A stretch of DNA of 64,000 bases from Ectocarpus siliculosus (Eukaryota; Sar; Phaeophyceae; Ectocarpales; Ectocarpaceae), in assembly GCA_000310025.1 (NCBI GenBank), contig FN649729.1:1900436-1964435 (forward strand). Direction: 5' to 3'. The position numbers and the translations under genes were made by a program. Below are positions 946-49,254 of this stretch, in pieces. How positions within the stretch are numbered: position 1 is the stretch's first letter; each line of letters starts with the position of its first letter. The notes beneath the pieces are model-generated. The model made no database searches. It had not been told where the DNA came from and saw only the letters and a program-made list of their open reading frames with translations.

Positions 946-3900
946 ATGGTTGGTTTGACTCACCTTGTTCACTCAATGCACTGCCGCAGTTTGCGGCGCA
1001 GCATCACGACCGGGGGGCCGTGTATGACACAAAACGGTGGTGTGGAAAGCACTGTCCACGTGGATGTCGAAGACCACAAAGTCGATGGTCATCCAATTCG
1101 GATATTTGATTGTGCCGGTCAGGTGAGACCCATTGTGTTCCTTGCACACGCGTGCGTTGACCCAGTCAGCTTGCGTGGTGGGTCGGTGTACTTTTGATTG
1201 GACGTTCTGTGGCAATCATCGAGGCCGAGGTTGGAGGTCGAGATCGTTTCATTTTGTCGTGAGCAGCTTCCAACCGGAGTTTCAAGCTATTCGCATGGAC
1301 GTTTGGTGCGAGTACAGGACGGGGTTTACATGGCTTTCAAATCCCAGTCCGCGCGGGCGCACTGCCATTGATATCCGTCAGCTGACATGATCTTATTGCG
1401 GGGTGGGGTTGTCTAGTTTTCTTCATCGTTTTCAGAAACATGCAGCCGGCGGGTGACATCGTCCGTCCTTAGTCGCATCATTCCTCGGTCAGTATCATTG
1501 CGATAAGGACTTCACACTGTCCTGGACCCCGGCAGTGAACTAACACGTATCGTATTCTCCTGCACCCTGTTACCCAATTCACTTCCTTCGACACCATGTA
1601 TCCGTCATGTGCGCCCCTCGACGTGTCTGTGATCCCCCACCTTGACCACCGGACAGGTTGTCTACTACGGACTGCTCCAGCTATTTCTCACCCCTCGTGC
1701 CGTGTACCTGTTGGTATGGGATGCGGCGAAAGCCAGCGAGATGGATGGCTTGAACCTTGAAGACCTTGCCATTGCCCCCTGGCTACGTTACTTGACTTTC
1801 CGTGTGCCGGATGCAAACGTGATCCTTGTGGGGAACAAGTGGGACCGCGTGGTAAGGACCAGGGGTACAGTAGCGGATGACGTAGAATGCGAGAGCCGCC
1901 GATGGCTGAAGTCCTGGATGGAGAAAGCACATGGACATCAACCCCACGGACTTTCGTTGGAAGATGGCGTCAGCCTTGTGAGCTGCGCGCAGTCTGGCCT
2001 AGGCGTCTCGGCACCAGCGTTCGGTGGGGGAACAGGCTGGCCCTGCGACAAGAGCACCCCGGGGCTTTTTCATCGCATGATATACGATCCTGTCGATGAC
2101 AAGAGGACTGTTACCATGCATCTTCCGCCGAGCTACCGACTCGCCCTTGAGATGCTTGAGGAGCTGGCCTCTTCCAGTAGGTAAGGCCAAAGATGTTATG
2201 TATTTGTCGCCAAGTCATGCAGTCCCAGTACATCGATATGCACGTCAACGGCTTAAGCGATGTGTGTTTTTTCCACATGGAGCAATAGCGTTGCTGTGCC
2301 CGCTCAAGCGTTTCAAGCATTGCACCACGATTGTGTGTGTGTGTGTGTGTGTTATCATCTTGCGGTCGGGGATGCATTCATGGAAAGTTCACCTCCTCTC
2401 GATCGGACCCGTGCAATTTTAGGCGCAAGGCCGAACAACGAACCCGGGGCATCACAAGAGCGGATTTGGAGGAAAAGTGGCACGCCAAGGTGGCTGAGCT
2501 GAACGGAGCCGGCACGCCGGTAGCCGCCCCAGAAGCGGCAATGCCTGGTGCGATCTTGATCAGGTAAGTTCAATCGGCGGTGCGGTTTTGGGTTGACTTT
2601 GTGCTTGGTTGCCTACGAGTACCAGCTGTTCAACGTCCTGGTTTGCATGGATCGGAAATATATTTTATGTTTGTGATGTTTGTGTGGCTTAACATCAGGT
2701 GCACACACCAGGAAAAACGTTCACGTTGAATAGAGTAGAACCGTTTTCAGCCAGTAGAGCTAGTGCACATTTATGCTCTGCTCTGCGTCCCACTTGCTGT
2801 CGGGCCCGGTTTTTGTATCGTACAACCTCTCTGTGTGCAGGAAGTGGGAGGGAGGGCTGGTGGAATACGGCAACTACGTCTTCCTCGACGTCGAGTGGTT
2901 TGCCACAGTTCTGGACCCTTTGTTTAGTCACAGGCGAGATTCATACGGCGACATTGATCTGGGTGGTATTCGGGTGACCAACCTTGCAAGCTTGCGCCGG
3001 CTGGACAACGAACATGTTTTCGAGCCGCAACTCGCTGAGGAGCTGTGGACTCCAGAGCTCGCACCACACCTTCTCCTGGCGTTGAAGAGCGCAGGGCTGA
3101 CGTTTCCCTTACCGAACGACCCCAATGGGGGCTTGGTGATCCTTTTGCGCATGGACACAACGCGCCCACCTGAGTATGGTATCAAGCTCGAGCAAGTGCA
3201 CAAAGCTAGCGAGGCCGACCTGAGGCTTACTGTGGCATGCTCGTTCAGTCTAGGTTTGCCCCCTGGCTTTGTCGAGCGTCTCCTAGCGCGGTGCTGCCAC
3301 ATGGGCTATCCTTTCCCCTTCTGGCGATACGGGGCTCTGATAGTGGGGAATGGTGCGGAAAAAGGGTTGTTCTCACTGAGTGTAGAGTACTCTGAGGAGG
3401 ACAAGATCCTGGCATTGGAGGTGTTCGGAGGATGTGAGGAGGTGCATGCGTGGGCGGCTCTGTCGAAAGTCCTCTCCGTCATGATCAAGATGCTCTCGGA
3501 GTTCCCTGGTTTACCATGCGAGCTGATGTTCTTCTGCCCACAGCACAAGACCAAGGGCATGCCGATCAGGACGACAGATGTAAGCTCTCCATCTCGTTGC
3601 TGTACGTGTTTTTGCCTTGTTCGAGCGATGATCCTACTGTAGCTCCATCCTCAACATGGCGACGGTGGAACTGAGTGCCAACAGTTCAAAAATTGCTCTG
3701 CCATGGCCAATCTTGTGCTGGCCAATCAACACGGTAGCCGCCGCTCATCGCTGCAATGTTTCAGCTCATTATGCAGATTGCAGACGAGTGCTTCGGCACC
3801 ACAGATGCAAGAATACCCACTACCAAATTGCGCATTCATATAACTCACCAGTGCGCGCTTTCATGTTGACAGGGACGACCGGGATCCTGCCTGGTGGAGG

Positions 3901-10812: not shown

Positions 10813-13800
10813 CGAAAAGCTTCTCAGGGTCCGTGGCCAGCGACACGGCCCTCTCCTCGTACTCCTCTAGGCTCTCCACGATCAGACCCGTGCCCTCCGC
10901 GCCCGCCGCCTTGAGCAGGGACGGCGCTACCCTCGTCGCCATCTTCGACCCGGCCATGGTCAGCATTGGCGTCCTGGAAGGCGTTTGTTATGTTGTTTCG
11001 ACCAACAAGACAATGGGGGGGGCGCCGCGCGGGGGGATTCGTTTTTTTATTTGAGGAGATGCCTCCAAGGCATTTCTTCTCCAACAGCTTGAATATTCAA
11101 AACAGGCGGGGCTTGCGTGTGTGTTTCTGAACTAGGATCGACCGCGCCATCCAGCTGGCCGATGTGTGTGCGTGTGCCGAAAAACAGTTACCTGGAATTG
11201 GGGAGGGAAAACATGAAAAAAGCACAAAGGTTCTGTGAAACGAAACGCCTGGAAAATAAAATCCTTCTCCTTGGTCACAAAGCATGAATCGATCGAACGT
11301 GCCCAGGGTTCGCACAACACGAACATTACGCGTGACAAAGTGAGCACAGATATGAACAACATTTTACAGGATGACGTGTTTGTTTCGCCGATTGTTGCGG
11401 GCCCCAGCAGGTCTTTGTCAGGCTTCAACTCCAAACGACGGCATGAAGATAAATTGTGTGCGGATGGACACCCTGCTCAAAGAGTGTTCCGCACTACTAC
11501 CATAGCAATTCAAAGGATCTGTCTGTCCGTCTCACCCGCTCCACAGGATGTCGCAGCCCGTGGTGTGCGCGTTGCAGCTCGGGGTGTCGAGAAAGAGGTC
11601 GGCCAGGTAACCCCGCTTGATGTGCTCCTCCTTCGTAGCCACGTCTGTGAAGTGCAGCTGTACCATACAAAACATTAGGAAAAGACGGGAATCGAGGGGG
11701 AGTGAGAAATAGAGAGTGGGAGGCAGAGAGAGGAGATCGAAAATCGCAATCGCAAGACGCTTTGCGATTGCTGGTGATACTGGTGATGCATTGTTGGACC
11801 TGCGGGTCTAGAAAAGAGGTGGATCGCAAGCAGAGCGACGTTATTGTCAGAAATCATACGAACATAGGACAGGCGGATCAAATATGACAGGTACAGAGCT
11901 GGCCCAACACAAGGAAGGTGCCCCACACATCATCATCATCAGCCAGACGTGACATCGTAACCTCCAGGTGCAGTAACATGGGAGAGTCCAAAAATTGGCC
12001 GGTAAACGTCGGGGCGACGATATTAACGAAAGCAACAGCAGCAATACTTGAAATGAAAGCCTTCACCCATACACCCTGTGTGACCTTCCTCCTGCCCTGG
12101 TGCGTCCAGAAATTCTATCAATGGGTGTAAGGACCGGCGTCCAGAGTAGATGGGACGACAAAAAACACACGCACACTGTTTCCAACCGCACTGAGACTGA
12201 CGTATTTTCATTGGTAAGCCGGTTTGCGCGGTCGATGGAAAAACACACACACACACACCAACACACACAAACACACAAACACACCTGCTCCTCTCTGACG
12301 CCCCTCTTCCTGGCCTCCATCCTGATGTTCGCCTCCCCCGCCGGAGGAAACCTCAGCAGCCACAGCACCGCGTTTGGCACCCTCTTGAGCACCGACATCC
12401 AGGTGGAGAAGATAGCCGGGTCCATCTTGTAGAGCTGGTTGAAGTTGCACAGCACGAAACGGTCCTCCGGCACGCCGTACGTGGCTCGGGTAGGGAGGAG
12501 CGTCCGATCCAGGACGTACCTAGCCGACTGTTGGCAGGAAAGCACCCGTGCAATTTTTGTTATATATTAAAGAACGGATCGGCACACATGAGCGATGGGT
12601 TGTTTTCCCGGCGGAAATCGGGTTTGGAGGGGGGGGGGTACGCAAAGTAACCGTCCGCCCGTCATCTGTTTCTTCTGCAGGATGGATGAGCACACATGAG
12701 GGGTGGAAATTGTTCTGGGGATTGTTACGCAAAAAACGTAAAAGGCCGCCACTACCCAGCCAATTGTTTTCTATGTTTTTCCGCCCGTCCGTTTTTCTTT
12801 TGTTTTCTTCAGAACCGACGAGCACACATGGGATATGGGGGGTATGGGGGGTGGTTACGCAACCTAGTCGACTGCTCGCAGCGTAATCGGTCCGTGCATT
12901 TGGTTTTAAATGAACAACGGATAGGCACATGACGGATGTTTTTTTCGGGGAGATACTTCAAGTTTGAGGTTGTCACTCAAGCGGAAAGTTGCGGCAGATC
13001 AGTCCGGAAATCGTAGTGCCAGTCATTTGGGAAGGCGGGAGTGCTGCCAACTACCAACTGCGGCCTGTACGCAAAACAACTCGGCGAGTGTCACCAGTCC
13101 CACCATCACTTCTGCCCCAACCCCCCCTCCACCCCCCCTCTCTCTCGCCCTCTTCCACCTTCCGCTCCCCTTCCCTCTCGCGACCAGAGAACTCTTGCCC
13201 CCCCCCTCCCATCTCACCTGCTTGTGGTCGTTGACGAAGTAGGAGTGAGGCATGTACAGGATGTTCTCGGTGTAGAACCGACGGCTCTCCCGCGGCACGA
13301 TGGTCTCGTCGGCGATCATGTACTGCATGTAGTCCGCACCGAGCGTGCCGCAGAACCCCAGGTAGGACACCTACAAAAACGAAACGTTGCGTTGTACAGT
13401 AGACGGAGGATGAATTATCTTGCCGCTGTCCAAAAAAAAAAAAAGGACCAACAAAAAAAAATTAAGGAATAATAAAAACACACACAGAAAGACTACCCAT
13501 TCGAGATATACCCACAGTCGAACGGGATGTGGTGGAGTCTTTTCAGTGAGTGGAGGGAAACCGGCTGGGTAAAACACAAGCGAGCCGTAGAACCCTGTGT
13601 AGGCAATGTAGGGCACCCGAATGAACAAACCGTTATGTTGTCGATGGAGAAACAGACTTGCCATTATGAAAAACAAAAAAAAGTTCAACCGTGTAATACA
13701 TGTAGAACCTCGGGTACAACACCAAAAAAAAAAACACTACTTTGTACCGTACGTACGGTAACGACGGAGTTGAAACATCAACCTCGCCATCACACGCAAA

Positions 13801-32272: not shown

Positions 32273-33303
32273 TGTAAGAAAAGAGTAAATGGGAGATTAG
32301 CAATGAATTAATCTTGTATTTATTATTATTAGCGTCAGAAACTACCTGTATTTCTGCGGTTTCCCGAGCGGCACCAAACACAGCATTTGTGTGATCTGTG
32401 TGACCTGTCTAGTACGCTACGTACGTGACGTATGTACATGCATTATGCACACAGAAGCATGCGTAAACGATTATTTTCTCCCTGCCGCGTGTTCATATCC
32501 ACCCCCCCCCTGGCTGGCGGCGCGTGGTTGTGGTGTGGCGTCACGGTTTCAGCATGTATAGTCTATCTAGATATAGTACATCGCAGCGTGTAGAGGTAGG
32601 CGAAATCCCGATTGTCTCATGTGGAACGCGATCGGCCATCATCACAAATTGAGTACATATTGGGGTTTGTGTGGTGGTTCGTGTTCTCTTTGCCTGTACC
32701 AACCACATGCTATCTTCGCGTTTTTAGGGGTTTTGATTTCCGGGTCTTTGATTTTTCTTGAAAAATAAAAAAAGAAATATCTGTAGGTATGTATGATATG
32801 CTACTATTGTAGGAGCATGTTGTAGCGCTGAAGCTACGAACCATTTGCTAACTAACCTACCTATTACACCCTTTCTCTATGGATATTGTATAGAGATGGG
32901 TTCGCTGTTTCATACGATGCGTAGTCTAAGAAAATGAAAAAAAAAGACATCAATGTCGTTGGCCTTGGACCAACGAAGGCGTCGGAATGGTAGACGTGAA
33001 CGACATGTTGTTTCTCAGCCCGGCTGCGCTGCCGCCCGCGTGGTTCAATTCCTTCTCTTGCGCCGTGCTCAAGGTCTTCCTCATCCTCCCTGCTGCGCTC
33101 TCGATACCTCTTCCCTGTGGTTCTCACCGCCCCACAATAAACGGTGCTCAAGATTTTGAGTATTGTTGGCTCAATTTTCTCAACTGTCAAGTTCTTCTGA
33201 GCGGGCGGTAACTGTATGTTATTCTCATAATCGGGCGACTACCAACACACTTTACTGTAGATTCCATGTTCACTGCCCCCGCCCCCCCCCCCCCCCCCCC
33301 CCC
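32273..33303. other. intergenic, ends in a poly-C run before a gap
   Basis: No gene is supported. The last part (about 32857-33303) is the good-quality version of the garbled sequence that follows the gap, and it ends in a C homopolymer of about 23. Confidence 0.5.
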
Positions 33304-33403
33304 NNNNNNNNNNNNNNNNNNNNNNNNNNNNNNNNNNNNNNNNNNNNNNNNNNNNNNNNNNNNNNNNNNNNNNNNNNNNNNNNNNNNNNNNNNNNNNNNN
33401 NNN
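33304..33403. other. assembly gap (100 N)
   Basis: There are exactly 100 N, preceded by poly-C. It lies between the OGT and PX-DUSP genes. Confidence 0.95.
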
Positions 33404-33825
33404 AAATAACCTCCCTTTTCCCCCCTTTTTTTATGGATTTTTTTTAGGAAGGGGTTTGGGTTTTCTTTCGGGGGGGTGGTTTAAGAAAAAAAAAAAAAAA
33501 AACCTCAATTTTTTTTGCCTTGGGCCCAAAAAGGGTTTGGAATGGGAGGCGGGAAACCCCTTTTTTTTTTCCCCCCGGGGGGGGTCCCCCCCGGGGGGTT
33601 AAATTCCTTTTTTTGGCCCGGGGCCAAGGTTTTCCCTCTCCCCCCCGGGGGGGCCTCGAAACCTTTTCCCCGGGGTTTCCCCCCCCCCCCAAAAAACGGG
33701 GCCCAAAATTTTGGGTTTTTTGGGCCCAATTTTTTCAACCTCCAAATTTTTTTGGGGGGGGGGGAAATTTTTTTTTTTTTTCTTAATGGGGGGACCCCCC
33801 CCCCCTTTTTTTGTGGTTTCCTTTT

Positions 33826-33857
<32 letters not shown>

Positions 33858-33860
33858 CCA
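33404..33860. other. low-quality duplicate of 32857-33303 (assembly artefact)
   Basis: The sequence is full of stretched homopolymers. It follows 32857-33303 step by step with bases collapsed or extended; for example, a blurred TTGGCCTTGGACC, then TGGAATGGGAGGCGGG, then a C run of about 25. It looks like the bad end of a read placed as new sequence. Open frames here are meaningless. Confidence 0.85.
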
Positions 33861-34567: not shown

Positions 34568-37500
34568 TCAAGACACCGATGTTTTGGAGTGCCAATGTTG
34601 TTGCTGTGGTTGTTGTTGTTGCCGCGGAGGTTGCTGCTGCTGCCGCTGCTGACCGCGTATGGTTGTGAGCATGTCCTTCGGCTTGACGCGGCGCTTCACG
34701 GCTCCGTCCTTGTCCACGTACACCTGGGAGCCTTGCATCTCGCGGATCAAGCTCTGCAGGCCCCAGACCAAGAGATCACAGCGCTGTTTATTTCGAAGAC
34801 CACGTTCGAGCACGAGAAGAGAGGAAGACGGGGGTGGAGGAGCTGAATAAATACAGTAGTGGTTTCCAGCTAAGTGGGTACTCGGTACTCGCAGAGCGAA
34901 GAGGGATGGATGGCCCGAAGGAGGCGAGGGGGGGGGGGGGTGTTGTGCCAAAGTGGCGTTCCCCAGACATCAGCCTTTGTCGCATCTAACCTCGGCGACC
35001 AATCGCCAAAATACGGCATCACTCCCTCAGGGCGGAGCCACAAAGAGGAGCGTGCTTCGTTTCTCCTGGGCAGCTCAGAATGAGTCACCACTTGGAGCAC
35101 CTCTAAGAATCCCGAGAGACTCGCTCACTGTTTCCTCCATGGGGGAACCAATGGAGACTGCATACCACGTTGTTGTACAGGGTTGGGTTCAAGCTCACAT
35201 GCTTGAAAATGTTTGGACCCTTATGTAACTACCTTGTCCGGCATCACCACGCACCATGCAATCTCCTCTTCACCCACAGCGCAGTATGAGGCGTGGATTT
35301 AAAATCTGAGCTCAGCGAAGGGGGCGGTAAAGCATGGCCGTAAAGGTACGGGCATGTAATGAAACAAAAAGGTATCTACCGCTATGGTGCAAGCGTGTTT
35401 CCCCTGTACATGGACCGCCTTCTCGAGGATATTTTTTTTTCTATGAAATAAAGAGGTGGGCTTCCTATCCCTATCCCTACCCCTACCCCTACATCTAACC
35501 ACCAAGATCTGCCGCAATAGGTACATACCTGGCCGCTCTTGCCATCATCGGGGACGGTGGAGGGGACGGCAAAGTTGAGTACCTTGCCCTCGGCCGCGAG
35601 GCTGAAGCAGGCGTCGTCGCTCAGCCGGCGGGCGCTTTTCTTGAGGGTCGCGGTTGACTTACCCTTCACCACGAACCTTTTTCACACGCGCCATACACCA
35701 CATTTGTTTTCCGCACAGCGACAGTGAACAAACGTTCGCAGCTTTTTGAGATTGCTGCGTATTTGAAGTTAAACAGAATGTCGGTAACAGTAGTGGGAGT
35801 GTCCTGGCGGCAGTGGTTCACTCACAGGGTGTCTATGACGTGCACGTTTTTGCTCTTCCAGTTCTTGAAAATAATGTCATTGATTGTTTTCATGCTGTCT
35901 TTTCCCGAATCTCATCCTGTTTAGGAAACCTGTCATCGGGCTAAACTCGTGAACGCGCGCCTGAAGCCTTACTTCGCGCGAGGCAGCACCTCAAAGGGAA
36001 CGACAGACCCGTAGAGCGACCTCAGCCATGAGGAAGAACCTTTCCCTGGAGGCGACGATCAAGTTTCATTCGAAGAACGGGTGTCCGGTGTTCCGCATGA
36101 TGCTTCGGCGGCAGGTTCACTCCGAATGAACGATTCCCCGCCCGTTGTCACGAACACTATTGTCCGACTCGGACCACCCCACAGTGGCTTAGGGATGCGA
36201 GTTTTCCAAAGTTTGTGAAAATTGAAAATGTTGTTGTGAACAGGAAAGGGGTGTGATTACAGAAACGGTTGTGATCAAGGCCTTGTTATACCGATTCACT
36301 GAAAGCGAACCAGCCCGCTGGAGGTCGCATTCATTCGTGAAGGCTAGTCTGGTTCACGAGGACTTTTTCGATCGCTAAAGCGAGGGACGGGGTAGGAAGG
36401 AACTCATCGCATGCGCGCCTCACCGAAGTCACCCTACTCCGTCGAATACGTGCTTAGTCGTACCAATTCCTGACTGCTGCAACAAGAAGCACGGACGTCC
36501 AGTCGCGTCTTTACCGGGATGCGAGTGAGCCTCAGGTAATACATCGCCTTTGCCGCTCATGATACCGTCCAATGGGATAGCATCCCCCACGAATATCCCC
36601 CGGCGCTATGTTGAACCGTGAGAGTCTTTGCAGGCAAAATTTCTAAACACTCTTGGCATGCCCCTGACATGCACTGTATCCCCCCGTCCCCGCCCAACCC
36701 CGACCCGCCTCTCACTTGAGGTTGTAGAGCATGATGCCGCGCCGGGAGCCTTCGGGAAGGCTGACACGGTCCTTCCCCTGGTAGTAGAGGTTGTGATCAT
36801 CGATGGAAAGGAGCGTCAGGTACGGCTTGCTCCCGATCAGCGCCTTTCTGGGCGGGAACCTCAGCAGTTTCTGCGAGCACGCGTGTTGGGTTGATTTCAA
36901 ACGGGTAGAGTGCTTGCGGTGGACGAAAAGGCAGTGAATCAGCAGCGACAGCAACAACGGTTGCAACACAGAAACTGGTCGTTTGAAAAACACGGTGCGC
37001 CTTGCGTGTAGTGAGCGAATGATTTTCGTTGGAGGTTCCTGTTGTATTCAACTATTGGATTTGGTTGGGTGAGGCCTCCTGCACCGACAGGAGGGCCTCG
37101 CCGTGAAGTAACTCTTCGGGCTGGAAATACAGGCCGCAATATGCCCAGACCCGAAGCGTTGAGTGATTAGCACGTTCATGAATAGAATTTGTATTTGTAG
37201 AGCGGGTGGGATGGTCTTAAAATGTTCTTTCTCCTCTACTCCGGCGTATGTCGGGAGACTAAGAGGGGACTGAACAAGGTAGAGTCATTTTCCAACATGC
37301 TGCATGGGATATCTGACTCTTCCCGATTTCGTTCCGAAATCTGGATTCGTCTCAAATCCGAGGTTCCCGCCTCAAACGTCGAAGGACAAAGCGCAACATC
37401 ATCTGCCATTTTCGCCCTCCTCGCGATCCCTCTCCTGGTATCGCTTCCTTCGTCGATGCTATGAATAGCAGATCGTGCTGCTTTTACCCCCCTACCTCTC

Positions 37501-40500
37501 TCTCACACACACCCGTCTTCCTTCAAGGAATTGACATGAAAAAAATCGTAGAATTGAGCGTCGTGCTGGCATCCACCCTCTGCGCTTATCTGTTTCATGT
37601 TTCCACCATTATTGCCATCACTATTGTATGCGTGGGCAGGCATGATCACCTGTCCCCGCAGGAGCTTGCGCTTGAGATGCTCGAGCACGATGTCTTCGCT
37701 GAAACGTCCATCCGCCCTGGTGAGGCCATTTCCGCATACCGGCCAGTGCATCGGACGGAGAGGTACGAACACCAGGGCATAGTAGGGAGTGGGTGCTTGC
37801 AGAGGCCAGCACTATTTGGTGTGCGTGCGGGGGCGTTATGCGTGTGGCTCGTCGACGAAGCTTTCGGTACATGAAAAGCTGGTAGTATGTTGAAGAAAGC
37901 CGCCATTTGATTTGGGCGGTAAAACAAGAATGAAATATTGGGTTCCGTGGAATAAGGAAAGGGTGATTTGGGGCGACGGGGAAGCCATGTCACGTTGAAG
38001 AGCAGGCAAGGCATCTCCCTAGTTTCACTGTTTGGGTACCACGAGGGCAAACTCCAATAATCTTATGGAAACTCTTTGGGAGTTTATCTGCATAGCGGGT
38101 TACACCCAGGACTCCCGGCAGCCATTCCAGACGTAGCGACGGAATTATAACGCGGTGCAAAGTAAGGTCACAATAGAGGGAATCCACGTGTTGTTGAAAT
38201 GACGTGAAAGATTGACATTTCAGGAAGTTTTGACGTGAAGAGGTTGCGCCGCTTTTTTGGGGGCAAACTCTGACGGCGAAATTTTTGTGAGGAAGCGTCA
38301 AAATGTCAAAATTAAATTTCACCCAAAGATAAAACGACGCGAAAAGATTGACGCTTCAAACATCGCCAGACTGTGGCTCACACACGCTTGCTCTGCTGCG
38401 GTCTGCTGTGCGCGGTCAGCAGCGAACACATTGGCCATGCCTATACTGATTGCTCCTAGCGGTCCTGCACCCACGCGTCTCGGCAGTTCTCACGGCGGCC
38501 AAGTGGCCAGACGCGCGTGTTCGGCGCGCGCGTTCGGTAGATGCGCCGTCGCGATTGCGCACGGGCTTTCAGCAGCAAAAAGGGGCATAGGCAGGGGAGT
38601 GATTGGGGGAGTCTCGCCCACGAAGGCAGCACATGGAGAGGAGTAAGGGAGGGGTACACGGACTTTGCCAGTCAGTAGGTGCATTTCGCCCGCCCCCTCA
38701 CGGGGTTCGGTGCTCTGCTGCCGCAGTGACATCGGTATATACACAGCAGTGCAGCGAGCAGCTGCCTTACTCATCAGCAACGAACGGCAGTTTGACGCCT
38801 GGGAAGTCGCAGTTTGACGCCTGGGAAAAGTCGCCGCGGCAAAGGAGGGAAGGTCGGCGGGATGAGGCGAAGGGGTACACCTAGTCTCCTGGGAGCCTGG
38901 GGGTGTGAGTCTTCGCTTCGGAATGTCGACCCTGGGTGGCAGCCCGAACCAACCTTGAACTCTACCTCCACCATTTTTTTTTTTTCACCTCTCACGTGTC
39001 AACGGGCACACGCGGTGCGAATTTTTTCCCGTCAAAACCCTCAACCGTCACTTTATGTTGGCGTCAATCCTCAAAGGTCAAAATTCCGCGTCAATCCATA
39101 GTGGATACCCTATAATATGGATGCCGAATGACGCGGCACTAAGCGCCAATGACGCAGCAGCAGCCCTCTACAGATGAATACGTACCTCATATCGGCGATC
39201 TTAGACAGGCTGAATACGTCGCGCTCCTCCAAGGGGAGCCGGAACCTCAGCACCAGCGGCCAGGGCGCCTGCCGGATGTGCGCCATGGCCTTCCGGTGGC
39301 CCATGTTCGCCACCTTCACCAGAAAACCAGCAACATCCGCGCGGAGTCATCGCACGGCAAAGGGTGAGGCTCTTTGGGGTTGTTGTATGCAGGAAAAGAG
39401 GAGTACGCCCAAAGACGTGAAACTGACAACAATTTGTCAGAACGCAAATTGATTTTGTCTACAATATTTTCTCCGCTGAGTGATGCGGGGATTTATTATT
39501 TGTGAATGATGTGTTGGCTGTTCCAAACAAGAGGCTTTCGAACGTCGACGGATACGTTTCACGCCTCCACCCGACGCACCCGCCGTGTTGTAGCACACGA
39601 CGGGAGAAACGAGCCATCACCGCATGGCGTAGTTGGTCGGGTAAAATGCCGTCTCATCTACTGGACGTTGCCTGCAGTTTTTAGCTACCCTGCTACTGTC
39701 CCGCCGCCCCGACTGGAGAGTTTGAATCCGGGATGATACCAACAACTCCGATGAGGATCGTGCGTTAATATTTTTCCGCGATACGGTGTGAGCCATTGGT
39801 ATTCTCAAGCACGTTGTGTGTCTTCCTGTAGATGATCACACACCACTAGATGACCAGCACACGAGCGTCATGCGGGCGATTGGCAGCGTTCTGCGGCCGA
39901 CTTCCGTGCAGATCGAATTCGATTCTGACGCCTCAAGCCCCTCCCACCCCCGCCCGAGATAATTCGAAACCCAACGGGCCGAAGCATCGCCATTACTTAT
40001 TGGTACCTGCCACATCCCCTCCCTCCCTCCCTCCCTCCCTCCCTTCCTGCCTACCTACCTACCTCCCTCCCTCCCTGCCTCCCTCCCTCCCTCCCTCCCT
40101 CCCTCCCTCCCTCCCTTCCTCCCTTCCTCACCGGCATGTTGTTGACGGCAAGCAAGACCGACTCCTTCTTCACTTGGCCTTGAAGCTCGGCCGGGACATC
40201 GAACACGATCGTCTGCTCTACCCCGGCTCTGGCCCCGCCGCCGTCGCCGCCGCCGCCGCCGACTACGTGACCCACCGCACCTTGGACCCTGCCTCCACTC
40301 TTCATTTGACCGCCCCGCTGCCTGAGGCCAATGTTGAGCCCGGTGTCTTCGTCGAACCGCACGTCGTTATTCCTTGAGGGAGATGTAGGGGGGGGGGGGG
40401 GAGGGGGTGTACTCATAGTCGTGCATGCCGTAGTCGTTTGACCATTGACCTCGCATCCCTACAAAGCCGGGACGGAGCACGCCGGGTTCTCCCCGGACCA

Positions 40501-43500
40501 GGCTCTCGCATCACCAAGCGCGAAGCGCCGTGAGGTGTTCGGCGAGTCGCATGAAGGGTGCGCTGCATCGTGCTAAGGGTGTTCGGCATCTTGTGCTTAC
40601 TTCCTTGCGTACGGATGACAGCTGCGTATGACTTGATTTATTTTCTGGTGCTTTCACTTCCAGAGACAGTTACAAGCACTGTGTAACTGCCTCGAGGATG
40701 CCTTTCCATTTTAACACAACGTAGTGCGATCATCCCCCTTGCGCGAAGTGAGGATTCTCGACCCCGCACAACATGATCTACTCGACCACCATTATGGTTA
40801 CCGCAAAAAAAATAACCAGAGGTAAAAAGAAAAAACGGTAACTTGGTTGCCGAGTTCACGAATTGAATTGGCTTGTTTTTCAACGTCGTTGCCAAGCGAC
40901 GAAAACCTAATCCCGATGGCAAACACCGAGGGGGGGGCTTGTTTTACAACGTCGTTGCCAAGCGACGAAAACCCAACTCCGATTGCAAACACCGGGGGGG
41001 GGGGGAGGAAAAATAGCACGAGTTGAAGAGTTCCAAGCTCTGATTTTCGTGATACGTTGGAATACTTGTTGTTGTTGCTGTTATTGTTTCGGAATTCGTT
41101 TCTCACCTCTGCTCCTCCGATGTTGACGATACTCTTCACTTCTCGAACCACCATGGGCTTGTTCTTTGGTGGTTCCTGCGTTGACGACGCCACGAAAATT
41201 GAAAAATAAAGAAGACGCGACAAGGACGCGATTGTTTTTCATCGCTTGCCAGAAACGTTTCGTTGGCCTGAGAGTCGAAACGTTGTATCGTGTTCGCACC
41301 CTCTCGAAAGACGCTTTTTGGAATATATTCGCTGCGCGTGTTGAAGATGAAGTGGGCACAATAGAAAAGCGTAGACTCGATACTATTCGTTAGCACCCGT
41401 CGGGAAAAACGGAGGCCGTTCTACACGTCACTCCAGCGATGGATGGGGACGATGAATTCTTTCTTAGAACTATGGACAGTGTGGAAGCAAGCGGTGTAGT
41501 TTGTGCTTCGGCCTGCCTTGTGGACGCTGGCAGCACAAACCACTCTGGGGAGGGGGAGGGTAAGGGTAGCTTGGTGAACACTCACGCTGACGGTGTTGTC
41601 GGCCCTCTCGAAGACGTCTTGGATGTACTGCTGCGTCTCCAGCCTGTCCACCTGGTACGTGTAGCCCTTTTTTCGGCGCCATTCCACCTTGGTACATGTG
41701 CGAACCGTGTGGGAGTTCGGGGTGTTGTCCCACAGCATGACGCGGTACGGTGTGGTGAGGCTCGTATCCAGCGTGGATGAAATACCTGTAAATATCACTC
41801 TGGACTGCTTGTATGGCTGCTGAACGATAAAAATAAGGATCAACAAGGAAGGGCGAGAAATCGAATCAACGATGCCACCGGCCATCTTTCTCTTGCCGAC
41901 GCTACATCTCAGCGTCTTGATGCATGGCAGCATTCCGATGCCCATAACTCCAACTGAGATAACCAAGACCATTCCTCACGTTGTGCAAGAAGCGACACAC
42001 TCGCAAACACCATTGACTATGCGAAAGAAACGGCGGCATGCGTGAGGGAGTGAGACCACCGAGATTCCACCATCAAGTCCGCCCCGATCACAAGGATAAA
42101 AAAATAAATTCATTCTCATCTTGCCGGACACACCTGGGTGAAGAGGGCTGCCCTCGTCATCCTTCCCTTCTTCCTCTCCCGCCTTGCCGTCTCTATGTGC
42201 GCCAGCGCCGCCTCCTGGATGTCATGCAATCTCCTCTCATAGAGCGCCTGGTGTTCCGCGGCATTAAAACATTCACCCTGATTTCCGCATGCAGTTATTG
42301 TACCGGAGTAGTCAACTGCTTCTCCCCACCCACCCCCGTCCCCCAGGCCGATCATGGCGGTGCTAAGCGGGCGCGAAGCCCACCCGCACCTATACGGGGC
42401 TAACGCAGTATCAAGAGAGAAGTTTCGTTTGAAGCCCCGTGGGAGCTGTAGTTTGGTCGCCATTGTGCCTTGCCTTGCCAGTCCCATGGGACGCGCTCCA
42501 GCGTTTCCGTTCAGGAAAATCGCTGACTTCTCGCATGAAGAAAATAGACAACAAACACCACCTTCATATTCTAGATGCGTGAGGCGAGATACTCGCATTC
42601 CTTCAATTTTTCAGCCATTGTACCTTGGGCAAAACAAAAATGCAAAGAACGAACCAGTCGGATGAAATAATTCCATTCGTGTTTCGTCTCACAAAAACTT
42701 ACCTCTTTTGCCCCCGCGTGTTCCATGGCAAGTCTAGAGAAGTACTCCCGCCAGGCCCGCTTCCTCCCCAGGAAACCCCTGATGCTCGCTTGAATATTCA
42801 CTACCGCCGTCGGGTACGCTGCGTGTTTCCAGAGTGAATTATCGGTAGCCGCCAGAAGGAGAACGAGGCAGCAAACGACTGAGACAGCTCATCGAGGCGA
42901 TCAAGAAAGCGTGCTTGCCTGCCGAAGACGGCGGCGGGGAATATTTCGTGTTCGGCGGATTTATCCTGGAGGCAGGGCTTGCCACAGGTAGGTCTGTAGC
43001 TCGTGTTTATGGGATGACGCGCGGGCGGTCGCGTGGCGTCTTTGGCACGAAAAGTGCAGTAGGAGCGGAGCCCAGCTATCAATGCGTTTAAAGATGTCGA
43101 ACGGCTACCCTAAGGAGAAATGACCGAGTCAACGCAGCTGCTGTTGACAACCGATCGCCCGAAGGCCCACCGCAACCACAAAAAACACAACCTGAAAGAA
43201 CGGGGGATCAATTTATTACGAAGACTCCAACCAAGAAACAGGCGTGTACCTATTGCCGAGCGGCCGTAGATGTCCTTGGAGGCTCTACCGATGCTCGGCC
43301 CGCCGCCGTACACCAGTAGCCAGTACGTCCAAACGTTGAAGTTCACCAAGCGGTAGTCTTCCCCGAGCACCAAACCCTGCATGCATAGAGTGAGCGAATA
43401 TTGCGCGTGCCGAGGCTGCAATCAAGATGACTACGACGCTATCGCCCTGTTCCGTATGTACTTGCGCTTTGAATGCAACGGAGACCATCGGAACAGTTGA

Positions 43501-46500
43501 TCACAACCACTCTATGACCGAAGCGCGTTTCCTTGGCTTCACCACTCCACTCGTCCGACGTTTGCTATTGGGCGTGCGAAGCACCGAACCGCTGCTGCCT
43601 CTGTCCCCAAGCAAAACACGTCAGTTTTCGCTCGGACTAACAAGCGAGTTTACCTTCCGAGCTTTGTTTGGCGCATCAAGGAGCGACCGGTTGTCTATCT
43701 CTCCGGGAGCGTGATACCGACGGGCCCCTCGCCCGAGGACGAACTTTGTCCACCTCACCAGCCAGTCCTCTTCTACCACCTGGCGGCGACCGTAGCGTGG
43801 CGGGACGGGTGTTTGCTACACGCGTGCCTCGATCATTCAGACAGTGCGGCATCTGGCCTTTGTTGAAAAATTGGAAAAGGCTTGGTGGATGTGCGCTGCA
43901 TTAGGTTTTCCCGCACGAGCTCTTCTCTCGGCTTCACGAGCCACCTGTCTTCTGCCGGGTTTGTCTGAATAGAAGCGTTTCAGGTTGGATGTCAGGGATC
44001 TGTCACGGGGTCGGTTGACGGAGAGTGAACGTGTATTGTCGAAACCGCGACACGTTCCGTGGGGTGCGTGAATGCCGTCAGCATCTGCTATCTAGAGCAC
44101 GGGTGTGGAATCAGAGGTGTATCTATGTTCTCGTTGCTACATCACGACGGGTGTGGGTCGATGAGATGTAGCGGAGTTATACCTGAGTTTTTTTTCAATT
44201 TTGGAGGTGTGAACGTGTTCTTCAGTGGTCGAGGACCCCGGTGCTCTGGCGTGGGGCATCCCGTCACAGAAGGCACACGGCCTATTCCTCTATGCGGCTT
44301 CAGCGGGCACGGGAACACTACGCAGCAATACTACCACAACATGGGCGTGGCGCCGGGTCGCAGGTCGGAACCCATGGTTTCGTAGCGAGTGAGCCGCGCC
44401 CGTGCGAGGTGATGATGATCGACCTTCAAACTTGTTCTACTCAAGCAGCGGCCGCACCTGCCAGCACGTATCGGGCAAGAGGTTTCGGCTATCGAGGTTT
44501 TCGCTCACGACCCGCCCCTCCTCCTCGATGTGAACCCTGCCGAAGTCAACCTGGCAATGGTCGTGGTCATCGTTGCCTAGTTATGGTGTGTTTTTTTTCT
44601 CTGCCATCCTCGTTCGTCATGTGCATGTGCGTGACGAAAAGCCGCTTCCTCCGTGCTCGACCAAGAGGTGGCGAGAACAAGCGTTTCGCGACTATGTAGA
44701 AGAATACGGAGTATGTCGCACACCACAGCAACACAAAATACGACGAAAATGACAACAACCACTAAAGCGATAAAGCCGCAGCAGAAGGGTGGCAGCACCA
44801 CCACCACCACCACACCACCAAGGACAGCGAAACAAGACGTTGTGGAACTGTACGCCTCTGGAAACGTCCTGTGGTAGGTGACAACGCAAGGGCAACCCTC
44901 TTTTCTCTCACCTTCAAAAATTCCATGACTCTCGGACTAAAAACGCCTCTTTTCGCCAGCAGCGTGTGAACCCTCTGCACATAGGCGCACAGCTCTCGTC
45001 CCAACTCTTGCTTCCCTCCTAATATGGCGGATTTCAGGGTTAAGAGTTAGTGTTGAGGGGGGGGGCGGACAGAACTCGATCAAATAATTTTATGCTTTGG
45101 GCCAACGACCGCCTCCCCCGAGACCAGCAGGGCGCTGTCGTGACTATCAAACCTTCTCGAGTTCTCTGTTGCTCTACTTCTTGAAATGTCACCAAGTAGG
45201 CAGGCGCGCGTTCAGTTTCACTCCTTGAACGAAACCGGATCTGAAGAGACCCAGTGCGTCTGCACCAAATCAAGAACTTCCAAACCGAGCAGCAAACCCA
45301 GATATAGATACAGTTGGGGTCTCGGTTCGACGATCCCCTGTTTAGCGACATACCTTGTTTAGCGACCACAAAATCACGTGGCACCGCTGCACTCCAGTAG
45401 TGAAACTGACATGATATTGTTACACTGTAGTTCGGTTTAGCGGCCTTCCCTGAATAGTTGCTACTTTTCGTCGTGACACTAGGGGTCGCTAAAACCACCC
45501 CCCCCACAGCAATTGATTTTTCGTCTCCCCAAGGAGCTCCGTGCGTCTGTGTCGAACAAGTGCTGACCTAATCCCCCGTGCACGCACCCAACAGAGAAGC
45601 GATCTCTCCCCCTTCGGGAAAGTTTGGCAGGATGATGAGCTCGGCGGCCAACCTCGCGTGCAGCTGCTCAAAGTCGCTCAGAAACCTCTCCACGCGATGT
45701 ATCCGCATACAATACGACACCTGTGTTATGTTTGCCGACAGCATTGGTGATTTGGTGCAGGGAAAACGGAAGGATTGGCGAGGAGTTTGTCGTTGTGTTG
45801 AGGGTAAGGGCGGGGCATGAAATTAGTACGTGTGATGTCGCTAGGTGGCGGAACCAAAAGGGGCGGCGGGCTCTATCGGGAGCGCGGTGGGTTGCCCACA
45901 CGAAAAAAGCTAAACCACGGGCAAAGATGGGGACGCCTAGCGACGGTATATCTACGAGAAGAGGCCATAGCGAAGCGAGACAGCAGAGCAGGAACGATGG
46001 TTCCGCATGTCCTATTGCACCTCATCCATCAAGTCCGTCTGTACTCTCACCTCTAACTCGAACGCAACGCGAGGCATCCCGCTGGATCCCTTCCCCCCGA
46101 ACACCGTCACGGCGCTCTTGAGCTGCACCGCGAGCATCTTAGATGCCCTCGCGCTGGGCCCCACGCTTACCCCCTAGGTCCTCCCACGGAGCAAAAAGAG
46201 AGAGGAAGATCGACGGGAGCGACAGTGACAGGATCAACAGCAGCAACAAAAGGGGGCAATTATGTTCAGAATGCCGTTCATTGATGTTGGATAATCTATC
46301 TCGTATTTCTACAAGACCGGAGAGGGGCACGCCGGTTTTATCACACGATCGGGCTGGCACAACACTAACGCTGTGCGCAAGCAAACTTGCGAGACATGAC
46401 CAATATCCACACGCGAGGACCTATACTTCAGGACGGGTCTCGAGCACTGGCCAGGGCTAGGATACGGGCACACACCTTGGCCTTCAGCGGGCGCAGAGTG

Positions 46501-49254
46501 TTAAGGATGTCCCACGGGTTCGTGTTCTGCAGCAGGGGCGAGCCGTCCAGCGACCGGGAGAGTTTTCCGGCTGGCCCCGCCAGTTCACCCGTGCACATTC
46601 GGTAGGCGAACAGCACCTGGGTCGATACGTTTTGTTCAGCATCAAGCACGTGCATCGTGTGAACCCGGATCAGAAAATCGCCAGGCGTGAACGTGAACGT
46701 TCGTGACTTCAAGACCGCGACGCATATATATAGGATTCGAAAGAAGGAGGCATACGATGGGGATGCTTCCCTGTGGTAGGGAACACGTTCCGGAAGGGTC
46801 CACTGCACCTGGCGGAAGTTGTGAAAGCTGTGCTTGGCGAGGCCTTGGAGGCCAGTGAAGTCCGGCGTCATCTGCAAACATCGCTGATGAGAATGTGTTT
46901 CACCAAAGGAGGATTGCGAACGAGCAGCAGGGTGAAACTGGGTGCAGAGTCCAGGTAGGGGTGCGCAAGTGAAACGTTTGTGATTTGCTGGCTAGGCCTG
47001 CACAATAGGCGGGCAAGCTTGTGCAAGCGTATGAGGTATTGGTCTTTTCGCCGTACTATGCCACACAGAATCACACAGACCAAGACTCCTTCTCAAATAC
47101 CCTGCAACGTGGTCTTGGGCCATATTTCCGCTGTGGACCCCCCCCCCCCCCCCCGGTCCCCCCCCGGCCAAAAACGTCCCCCCAGTCCCCTGGGGGTTAT
47201 TCCTTGGAAAACCCCAAAAACTTAAAAAAACGACAAAACAATTGCGAAAGGGAAAGGGAAAGAAGCACACCCGGGCCTTTGCATATAACGTGAAAAATGG
47301 GCATTGTTTTTAAAAATTTCCCGCTGGGGAATGGACCCCCCCCAAAGGGTCCAAGTGGGGCAATATGGAAAAACCCCACAAAAAAGAAGGGATTGCCCAT
47401 GGAAATATGGCAGCCCCCCGAAAACAATTGCCAATCCCTATTAATATGACCCCTTGAAAATCCTTGCCCGTGAGGAAATATGAACGTCAGTGGGCCCAAA
47501 GGAATGGCCTTGGGAACTTCCCCCTTTCAAAAGACTGGGTGAAGGGGCGTTCCCGCCCTAAGGAGCTTCCCCCAAGGCCGAAATAAGGATGGAAATGCTT
47601 CCCTCCCGTGGTGCCGCTCCGAACTTTCATTTGTTTTTATGGCCGAAAAAGGGGAAGGGGGGACAATACCAAAAAATTCCTCCTTCCANNNNNNNNNNNN
47701 NNNNNNNNNNNNNNNNNNNNNNNNNNNNNNNNNNNNNNNNNNNNNNNNNNNNNNNNNNNNNNNNNNNNNNNNNNNNNNNNNNNNNNNNGCCCCCCCCCCC
47801 CCCCCCGTGTCCGCACCTGTCGAAAAGCGTCCCTCAAGTCCCATGGTGTTGATTCGTTGGAAAGCCCAAAGATCTTAAGAGAGCGACAAAACAATTGCGA
47901 AGGGGAAGGCGACAGAGGCACACACGGTCGTTTGCATATAACGTGAAGATTGGGCATTGTTTTGAAGAATTTCGCGCTGGGGATTGTACCTCGCCAGAGG
48001 TGTCGATGTGGTGCAGTATGGAAGACCTCAACAAGAAGGAAGGGATTGCACATGGAAGTATGGCAGCCACCGGATAGCAGTTGCGATTCACTATTAGTAT
48101 GACCCATTGAATATCATTGCCAGTGAGGATATATGAACGTCAGTGGTCCGAATGGAATGCCGTTGGGAACTTCCTCGTTTCAAAGGACTGGGTGATGGTG
48201 CGTTCCGGCCATAGGCAGCTTCGCCGAGGTCGGAATTAGGTATGGAATTGCTTCCATCCAGTGCTGCAGCTCGGAACTTCAATTTGTTTTAATGTCGGAT
48301 AAGGCGGATGTGGTGACAATACGAAAACATCGCTCATCACACGGGCACAACCGCGACACCGTCAGACTAAGTTAACTTTCAGCATTTTCGAGAACAGCAC
48401 ACATCCACCCGTCAATTAACAATGATTTGGGGGACAAGAACTCCTGTGAAGTATCCGTTTTGAGGTCTGAACGGTCTGTGCGTTCATGAATGATATACTG
48501 TACAAGCAAGGGCACAGCTTCACATCTCAAGTGTCATGTAGGTGTCCGGGGTGCAGGTATCGTGTACCATCTGGTTTCGCTGTAGTGCCATGGTGATGGT
48601 TGGACAGTGCAGCCCACTCTATTTTTCTCGAACCAAGGACATCCTAGTATGGGAAGGGCTACTGGCTTTCGCTCTACGCGGAGAATCAGCGACTACAAGA
48701 CATCCTTCAAGTAAAAAAAAAAATACTGCACTGTGGTTGAATCACACTGAATATCCCTCACATTGACAACCGAGGGCACAAAGTCGATTGACCCCTCGGA
48801 CTTCTAAAGCACCGTAGCCGTAACCATCGGTGTTACTCATTATGGGCAAGCAGCCTTGCTACGTGAAAGGCTTCATCCGGTTGCAGACGAGAAACGCGCG
48901 GCTGGAAAGTTCCAGCACGCATTCAAACGATCCCTGGCGGAACAACTGCCGACGGTCTACATGGCACTCACCAAACAAGAGTCTGGTGCCTACCTTCCAG
49001 GGGTTGACGTAAGTGTCCCTGAGATCTGGCGGCAGATCGTTGATGTCATCCTCGTCTGTCTTGAACCACCCATCTAACAGGAAGGCCATGCCAATTGGCA
49101 GCAGAGGAACGAGAGAAGCTACAGCGATCGCTGTCCAAGCGGCTACGCGTGAGAAATGCGGCGAAACTGTCCCTGCAATTCCGCCGCAATTTTCGGGCCA
49201 GTCGAAAGTCGAGGCGAGTGATGTTGTGATGTTGTGATGTTGTCGCTCCGCCAT
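34568..49254 (-). CDS. membrane-anchored PX-DUSP-IQ-PDZ-PH protein
   Basis: Seventeen exons join to 2463 nt (820 residues): 49254-48994, 46871-46809, 46616-46476, 46137-46051, 45720-45588, 45018-44912, 43376-43250, 42818-42703, 42247-42134, 41819-41586, 41175-41107, 40458-40132, 39313-39186, 37716-37650, 36870-36716, 35676-35529, 34753-34568. Phases agree at all junctions. In order I see: a membrane helix (about 37-62, IAVASLVPLLPIGMAFLL) followed by acidic KTDEDDINDL; PX (156-264, RVERFLSDFEQLH, ILPNFPEGG); the C-terminal core of a DUSP domain (265-309, GEDYRLVNFNVWTYWLL, YGGGPSIGR); an IQ motif (315-326, IQASIRGFLGRK); an unrecognised segment (384-484); PDZ (about 497-615, GLNIGL, VLLAVNNMPV, PWPLVLRFRLP); PH-like (659-770, VVKGKSTATLKKS, DDACFSLAAEGKVL); and a Gln-rich tail. 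By family, PX and PH bind phosphoinositides, IQ binds calmodulin and PDZ binds peptide tails. A membrane scaffold role is inferred. No deubiquitinase catalytic domain is present. Confidence 0.75.
40016..40128. repeat. (CCCT)n microsatellite
   Basis: About 110 bp of CCCT units with a few interruptions sits immediately after the donor of exon 12 of the PX-DUSP gene. On the gene strand the intron starts GTGAGG and continues as GGGA repeats. Confidence 0.9.
47136..47688. other. low-quality duplicate of about 47805-48330 (assembly artefact)
   Basis: After a C run at 47139-47154 the sequence repeats 47805-48330 base by base but with blurred homopolymers. Shared anchors are GACAAAACAATTGCGAA, TTTGCATATAACGTGAA and ATATGAACGTCAGTGG. 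It lies in intron 1 of the PX-DUSP gene, so the intron is probably shorter than shown. Confidence 0.88.
47689..47788. other. assembly gap (100 N)
   Basis: There are exactly 100 N between the blurred copy and the clean copy. A C run of about 15 follows at 47790. Confidence 0.95.

What the first reader, a model, noticed from the sequence alone, without database searches (positions are those of the whole stretch)
34568..49254. One protein combining a membrane helix, PX, DUSP, IQ, PDZ and PH modules
The 17 exons keep phase throughout and end at a single stop, so the modules appear to be one polypeptide. DUSP normally occurs in ubiquitin-specific proteases; here it follows PX directly and has no protease domain. 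Two lipid-binding modules, a calmodulin-type motif and a PDZ on a membrane-anchored protein suggest a calcium- and phosphoinositide-regulated scaffold. I know of no described protein with this order. Segment 384-484 is an unrecognised possible new domain.
Basis: partly seen in the sequence, partly recalled or inferred. Interest (0 to 1): 0.85.

Follow-up and report, generated by a model that had tools for sequence, protein, structure and literature searches.

The report
Multi-module adaptor gene with protease-free DUSP
This looks like a real adaptor-type gene that strings known protein modules together in an unusual order; the DUSP module, usually found in ubiquitin proteases, is certain, while the membrane anchor, the lipid binding and the unity of its two halves are unproven.

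Summary
I rebuild it with 20 exons, not 17. Codon use and third-position GC support coding. DUSP is certain (E 2.8e-13). PDZ is probable (E 2.1e-4, just below Pfam's cut-off). IQ is motif-level (E 0.03). PX shows only in SNX22 (E 0.018) and a small home-made profile. PH is a hint only. The PX aligns with none of the four PtdIns3P-binding residues, so 'two lipid-binding modules' is not supported. Two joins are weak: the membrane exon lies across an assembly gap, and a 615-bp genomic repeat blurs the join of the PX-DUSP-IQ and PDZ-PH halves. Protease-free DUSP is not unique here: two of four other DUSP places lack a nearby protease match. No relative was found, but no collection of algal genomes could be searched. 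Best reading: a single-copy adaptor, new as a combination, not as a kind.

The parts
48994..49254 (-). exon 1: ATG and the most hydrophobic stretch (residues 42-60, about 49131-49075)
   Evidence: lies on the far side of the 100-N gap from all other exons; codon score exceeded by 1.9% of intron stretches
47138..47788 (.). inside intron 1: 100-N gap (47689-47788) and a degraded copy (47138-47674) of 47790-48327; probably an unmerged contig end
   Evidence: 80.4% identity over 540 columns, colinear; genome search lists only the two flanks themselves, but it also missed this 80% copy, so it is insensitive
46476..46871 (-). exons 2-3 (46871-46809, 46616-46476), no recognised domain
44912..46173 (-). 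exons 4-6 (46173-46051, 45720-45588, 45018-44912): PX-like domain without the canonical PtdIns3P residues
44458..44550 (-). exon 7: linker and the first residues of the DUSP match
43250..43779 (-). exons 8-9 (43779-43654, 43376-43250): DUSP domain, residues 306-380 (the match starts at the end of exon 7)
   Evidence: Pfam PF06337 E 2.8e-13; USP11 chain 4mel E 3.5e-6
42703..42818 (-). exon 10: IQ motif IQASIRGFLGR (42795-42763)
   Evidence: Pfam IQ E 0.03, below cut-off; the motif pattern occurs once in 937 residues
   Evidence: no solved-structure match at E<=10, best Pfam DUF1571 E 0.026 below cut-off; AF2 of exon 12 alone pLDDT 50.9, three strands and a helix; the exon 12 donor of this model is weak (3.1 bits; the 17 donors the score was built from run 6.3-10.9), and a donor at 41652 scores better
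40391..41005 (-). about 615-bp dispersed repeat in intron 13, ending in poly-C before exon 14
   Evidence: 39 other full or near-full copies at 94-95% among the best rows
39186..40372 (-). exons 14-15 (40372 or 40317 to 40132, and 39313-39186): PDZ-like domain
   Evidence: Pfam PDZ 22.0 bits, E 2.1e-4, cut-off 23.2; PSD-95-type chains lead the solved-structure list from E 0.0013; start uncertain
34568..37716 (-). exons 16-20 (37716-37650, 36870-36716, 35894-35826, 35676-35529, 34783-34568): possible PLC-type PH domain, basic and Q-rich tail, stop
   Evidence: the PH reading rests on weak matches and a recalled motif

Best explanation
One single-copy gene encodes a multi-domain adaptor of roughly 900-940 residues. 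Likely working (inferred): DUSP and PDZ dock two different partners, the IQ motif binds calmodulin or a calmodulin-like light chain and makes the assembly respond to calcium, and the degenerate PX acts as a protein-binding fold or weak membrane contact rather than a PtdIns3P reader. A C-terminal PH-like fold, and perhaps an N-terminal helix, place it at membranes. Shown here: DUSP (strong), PX-like stretch (moderate), PDZ (moderate), IQ motif (weak), coding signal of the exons. Inferred: the single transcript, the membrane position, and every partner or regulation.
For: 20 exons chain in phase to one stop. In a leave-one-out codon score 19 of 20 exons are exceeded by under 5% of intron stretches (exon 6: 9.1%). 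GC3 0.748 against intron GC 0.523. The DUSP match runs across exons 7-9, the SNX22 match across exons 4-6 and the PDZ match across exons 14-15. Outside the gene itself the genome gave only two chance-level matches to residues 1-568 (E 0.11 and 0.53) and, for the rest, repeat-type matches to the start of exon 14. No UCH protease match in the window. Passages of PMC5343593 and PMC7935551 describe DUSP of USP15 and USP4 as a protein-docking domain.
Against: No transcript. The intron 13/exon 14 join has competing solutions, the acceptor behind the poly-pyrimidine tract (40372) does not fit the strongest donor (41107) in frame, and my exon 12 donor is weak. PX, PDZ, IQ and PH all fail or miss Pfam's cut-offs. 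Exon 1 lies across a gap. No orthologue could be examined (searches found none).
Confidence: 0.6

Rival explanations
1. Two neighbouring genes on one strand: a PX-DUSP-IQ protein ending soon after exon 13, and a PDZ-PH protein starting at or near exon 14.
For: The join is the weakest of the model: a 615-bp repeat sits there, the strongest donor (41107, phase 0) does not fit the acceptor at 40372 (phase 2), the exon 13 frame can run on to a stop near 40.8 kb, and the repeat offers an ATG in frame with the PDZ.
Against: Frame-consistent joins exist, for example 41107 to 40317, and the space between the halves is intron-sized. Promoters and polyadenylation sites were not searched for.
Confidence: 0.25
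2. One adaptor gene without the membrane exon: exon 1 belongs to another transcript or is a false exon, and translation starts at the ATG that opens exon 2 (46871). This can be true together with the best explanation.
For: Exon 1 is 2.1 kb away across a 100-N gap, exon 2 begins with ATG, and the residues after the hydrophobic stretch are strongly acidic, which by the positive-inside rule (recalled) would put the PX-PH part outside the cytosol.
Against: Exon 1 joins in phase with a GT donor. The gap flanks are two copies of one sequence, so the neighbourhood is probably right. The exon 1 codon score is exceeded by only 1.9% of intron stretches.
Confidence: 0.35
3. A decayed or inactivated gene: a repeat inserted at the exon 14 border spoils splicing.
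For: Repeat insertion beside the acceptor, homopolymer-rich border, and no clean frame-fitting join there.
Against: No stop or frameshift is needed in any of the 20 exons, and a poly-pyrimidine tract and AG remain behind the repeat.
Confidence: 0.08

Closest known systems
DUSP domains of ubiquitin-specific proteases (USP4/11/15; Pfam PF06337)
   Same: DUSP by sequence (E 2.8e-13; USP11 chain 4mel 3.5e-6)
   Different: no UCH protease and no ubiquitin-like domain in the Pfam scan; sits between a PX-like stretch and an IQ motif
PX proteins (sorting nexins; nearest by sequence SNX22, E 0.018)
   Same: PX-like stretch with SDFEQLH and LPNFP
   Different: lacks all four PtdIns3P residues by alignment; SNX27 has the order PDZ-PX-FERM (recalled)
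PDZ domains of PSD-95 type
   Same: PSD-95-type PDZ chains are the best solved-structure matches (E from 0.0013)
   Different: Gly-rich insertion, which also draws chance matches such as antibody linkers in that list; below Pfam's cut-off
PLC-delta1 PH domain
   Same: weak match of a 54-residue part and an end motif W-GL--LI (recalled)
   Different: not significant in Pfam and not listed in the solved-structure search with the corrected C-terminus
Other DUSP loci of the same genome without a nearby protease match (L011 on C6, L012 on C2)
   Same: DUSP halves and no UCH match near
   Different: no PX or PDZ among the few ORFs scanned there; upstream of L012 a weak kinase-like ORF (Pkinase E 0.28), not among the 138 kinase matches of the genome search (120 of 678 candidates scored)

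Membership tests
DUSP domain | Pfam DUSP above cut-off | tested here: met
   50.6 bits against 29.3
Ubiquitin-specific protease | UCH catalytic domain in the same gene | tested here: not met
   no UCH in the Pfam scan of the protein; none of 59 genome matches falls in the window
PX domain (sorting nexin type) | Pfam PX above cut-off | tested here: not met
   no PX listed at E<=10 in two scans
PX domain (sorting nexin type) | similarity to PX sequences beyond chance | tested here: met
   3-sequence profile 16.4 bits; best of 12,592 scored shuffles (20,000 made) 9.0; SNX22 E 0.018
PtdIns3P-binding PX | Arg-Tyr pair, PPK-loop Lys, alpha-2 Arg | tested here: not met
   aligned residues Phe, Leu, Gly, Leu; a one-residue shift would restore an Arg-Phe pair but not the Lys
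PDZ domain | Pfam PDZ above cut-off | tested here: inconclusive
   22.0 bits against 23.2, E 2.1e-4
IQ motif | Pfam IQ above cut-off | tested here: inconclusive
   14.5 bits against 20.3, E 0.03; the core pattern (recalled) is present once
PH domain | Pfam PH or significant solved-structure match by sequence | tested here: inconclusive
   none in Pfam; PLC-delta1 at E 1.6 behind an unrelated chain, absent; fragment test positive but small
PH domain | PH fold | not testable with these tools
Membrane protein | transmembrane helix in the mature protein | tested here: inconclusive
   one 19-residue stretch of mean hydropathy 2.31; linkage of its exon unproven

The most novel reading that the evidence does not exclude
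In this lineage DUSP has been freed from proteases and become a general docking module of signalling adaptors: here PX-DUSP-IQ-PDZ-PH in one calcium-sensitive protein, and two more DUSP genes without a protease in the same genome.
Probability: 0.25. Interest if true: 0.5.

Novelty: new variant of a known kind. Interest (0 to 1): 0.35.

Why it matters
If the gene is one transcript, it shows a ubiquitin-protease accessory domain used as a plain docking module in a calcium-linked adaptor, and gives a handle on signalling scaffolds in a lineage with few described ones. The searches 'DUSP domain' with 'ubiquitin-specific' and 'PX domain', and 'brown alga' with 'DUSP domain', found 0 papers in the held library. 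A 2010 survey of domains that occur with PX does not contain the word DUSP in its main text but lists PH, PDZ and IQ (PMC2837644, passages).

Tried and rejected
Exon 14 from 40458 was dropped as coding once 111 of 118 listed genome matches proved to be other places matching its first residues and the DNA proved a 615-bp repeat. The 937-residue translation still contains that stretch, so the true protein is probably shorter there. Exon 20 from 34753 was moved to 34783 because the longer frame reads VWGLQSLI, as in PLC PH ends (motif recalled); a first attempt was off by one base and was corrected. The move did not improve the solved-structure match.

Relatives: viral contigs and genome contigs gave pattern matches but none confirmed. 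Those collections hold viruses and prokaryotes, so this says little about algae or oomycetes. NCBIfam gave nothing for residues 1-545. AlphaFold2 on single exon pieces gave pLDDT 50.9 (exon 12) and 43.6 (40132-40374), too low for a fold search, so none was run. Rfam found nothing in the window at gathering scores.

Selection effects: SNX22 was chosen because it matched, so I repeated the PX test without it; the three sequences left came from the SNX22 search, where 17 chains matched and 5 alignments were printed; I used 4 of these. Shuffles that HMMER did not report count as below the score. The codon test uses exons picked for open frames and only the first 600 bases of intron 1. The genome searches go exon by exon: the DUSP search did not list the window's own DUSP, which an intron splits, so the four other places are a lower bound and a missing UCH is not proof of absence.

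Full report
What was checked. The window is a 64-kb piece of contig C4 of a 189-Mb genome in 492 contigs. I read 33.5-50.5 kb, translated the minus strand and chained exons by hand with GT-AG borders. The result, after the corrections described below, is 20 exons from the ATG at 49254 to the TGA ending at 34568, 937 residues as translated.

Is it coding? A codon score trained on the other 19 exons against intron triplets puts every exon above at least 90.9% of same-length intron stretches, and 19 of 20 above 95%. GC at third positions is 0.748 against 0.523 for introns. Matches run across joins: DUSP over exons 7-9 (residues 306-380), SNX22 over exons 4-6, PDZ over exons 14-15.

Modules. Pfam on the first 927-residue model gives DUSP 2.8e-13 (50.6 bits, cut-off 29.3), PDZ 9e-4, IQ 0.03, a chance-level Imm31 (3.4) and nothing for PX or PH. 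The PDZ piece alone scores 22.0 bits, E 2.1e-4, cut-off 23.2. PSD-95-type chains lead its solved-structure list (E 0.0013 down), but the Gly-rich insertion also draws antibody linkers and other unrelated chains lower down. For PX, the solved-structure search gives only SNX22 at E 0.018 as a sensible hit among 3. A profile of SNX24, a designed CISK-PX and nischarin, without SNX22, gives 16.4 bits for the window segment; the best of 12,592 scored shuffles (20,000 made) is 9.0, and pieces of the protein that do not overlap the segment score 0.2 or less among the 25 best printed. So a PX-like domain is likely. For PH, PLC-delta1 came at E 1.6 with the first C-terminus, behind a CdnE enzyme at 0.74, and was not listed with the corrected one, where only the CdnE chain appears at 0.69. 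The 54-residue fragment scores 12.1 bits against a best of 8.3 among 3,311 scored of 5,000 shuffles. That is a hint, not a proof. The segment after IQ has no family over cut-off (best DUF1571, E 0.026) and no solved-structure match at E<=10.

Lipid binding. Passages of PMC6449406 state that PtdIns3P-binding PX domains possess an Arg-Tyr pair, the PPK-loop Lys and an alpha-2 Arg, and that secondary sites have a His or Tyr at the start of alpha-1. Aligned with four PX sequences, the window has Phe-Leu, Gly and Leu at the four places, and Glu where SNX22 has His. A shift of one residue would restore an Arg-Phe pair but not the Lys. The alignment itself is of low identity.

Weak joints. (a) Intron 1 holds a 100-N gap; left of the gap 540 columns repeat the sequence right of it at 80.4%, colinear. 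A genome search listed only the two flanks themselves, but it also failed to list this 80% copy, so it would miss diverged repeats. The likely meaning is an unmerged poor-quality contig end: exon 1 is probably in the right place, but no sequence evidence ties it to exon 2. The hydrophobic stretch is followed by acidic residues, which by the positive-inside rule (recalled) would place the rest of the protein outside the cytosol, unfit for these modules. (b) Intron 13 holds a repeat at 41005-40391; one search lists 75 matches (the window itself included) from 40 scored of 2,730 first-look candidates, the full-length ones mostly 94-95% identical. Behind it, the acceptor at 40372 needs phase 2, while the strongest donor (41107) is phase 0; a fitting acceptor at 40317 exists but drops residues that look like the first PDZ strands. 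The Pfam PDZ match starts after both. My exon 12 donor at 41586 scores 3.1 bits where the 17 donors used for the score run 6.3-10.9, and the best-scoring solutions end exon 12 at 41652 instead. The union of the two halves is thus likely but unproven.

Context in the genome. The first half matches 13 places that are its own exons and two chance-level places (E 0.113 and 0.526). The second half matches 7 places that are its own exons and 111 repeat-type places at its first residues. DUSP matches at four other places; the window's own DUSP, split by an intron, was not listed, so this is a lower bound. Two (C12, C62) have UCH protease exons within about 5 kb downstream on the same strand; two (C6, C2) have none near. 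DUSP halves were seen there by Pfam (8.5e-6 and 0.03 at C2; 3e-6 at C6; each half below the cut-off set for the whole domain). A weak kinase-like ORF lies about 5 kb upstream at C2 (E 0.28) and is not among the 138 kinase matches listed for the genome. Five PX matches over the cut-off exist elsewhere, none in this gene. No UCH match lies in the window.

Mechanism. Passages of PMC5343593 and PMC7935551 describe DUSP as a docking surface (SART3 for USP15; RIG-I and Rheb for USP4). With PDZ and IQ this suggests an adaptor that brings partners together under calcium control. Every partner is inferred.

Literature, from search listings unless said otherwise. Searches for PX, DUSP, IQ and stramenopile (2 papers, neither with 'DUSP domain'), brown alga with DUSP domain (0), PX, PDZ, PH, DUSP and oomycete (8), DUSP or PX architectures (106, 20 listed; 14, 12 listed), 'DUSP domain' with 'ubiquitin-specific' and 'PX domain' (0), and Ectocarpus with PX domain (3) showed no title or abstract start that describes this order. 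Only openly licensed papers are held. Verdict: a real and unusual combination of known modules, with two important joins unproven; interest moderate to low.

Noticed in passing
41005-40391: A 615-bp dispersed repeat, full-length copies mostly 94-95% identical, sometimes in tandem and with partial 66-68-bp copies; both ends lie in poly-C runs (by eye).
   Followed up: partly
47138-48327: 100-N gap flanked by a good and a degraded copy of the same 540 bp (80.4%): probably unmerged contig ends in the assembly.
   Followed up: yes
32850-33860: Another 100-N gap (33304-33403) flanked by low-quality homopolymer-rich copies about 71% alike; probably the same kind of artefact.
   Followed up: partly
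12066-12566, minus strand: Exon of an O-GlcNAc-transferase-type gene (Glyco_transf_41 E 2e-28).
   Followed up: no
1633-3639, plus strand: Roc and COR-B pieces of a ROCO-type protein (E 4.1e-5 and 3.2e-4, both below Pfam cut-offs).
   Followed up: no
L013:9465-9821 with L012:4716-6065: A DUSP gene without a nearby protease match, with a weak kinase-like ORF (HGHVTPGRILF, Pkinase E 0.28) about 5 kb upstream on the same strand.
   Followed up: partly
L011:4886-5476, minus strand: First half of another DUSP (E 3e-6) with no UCH match on contig C6.
   Followed up: partly
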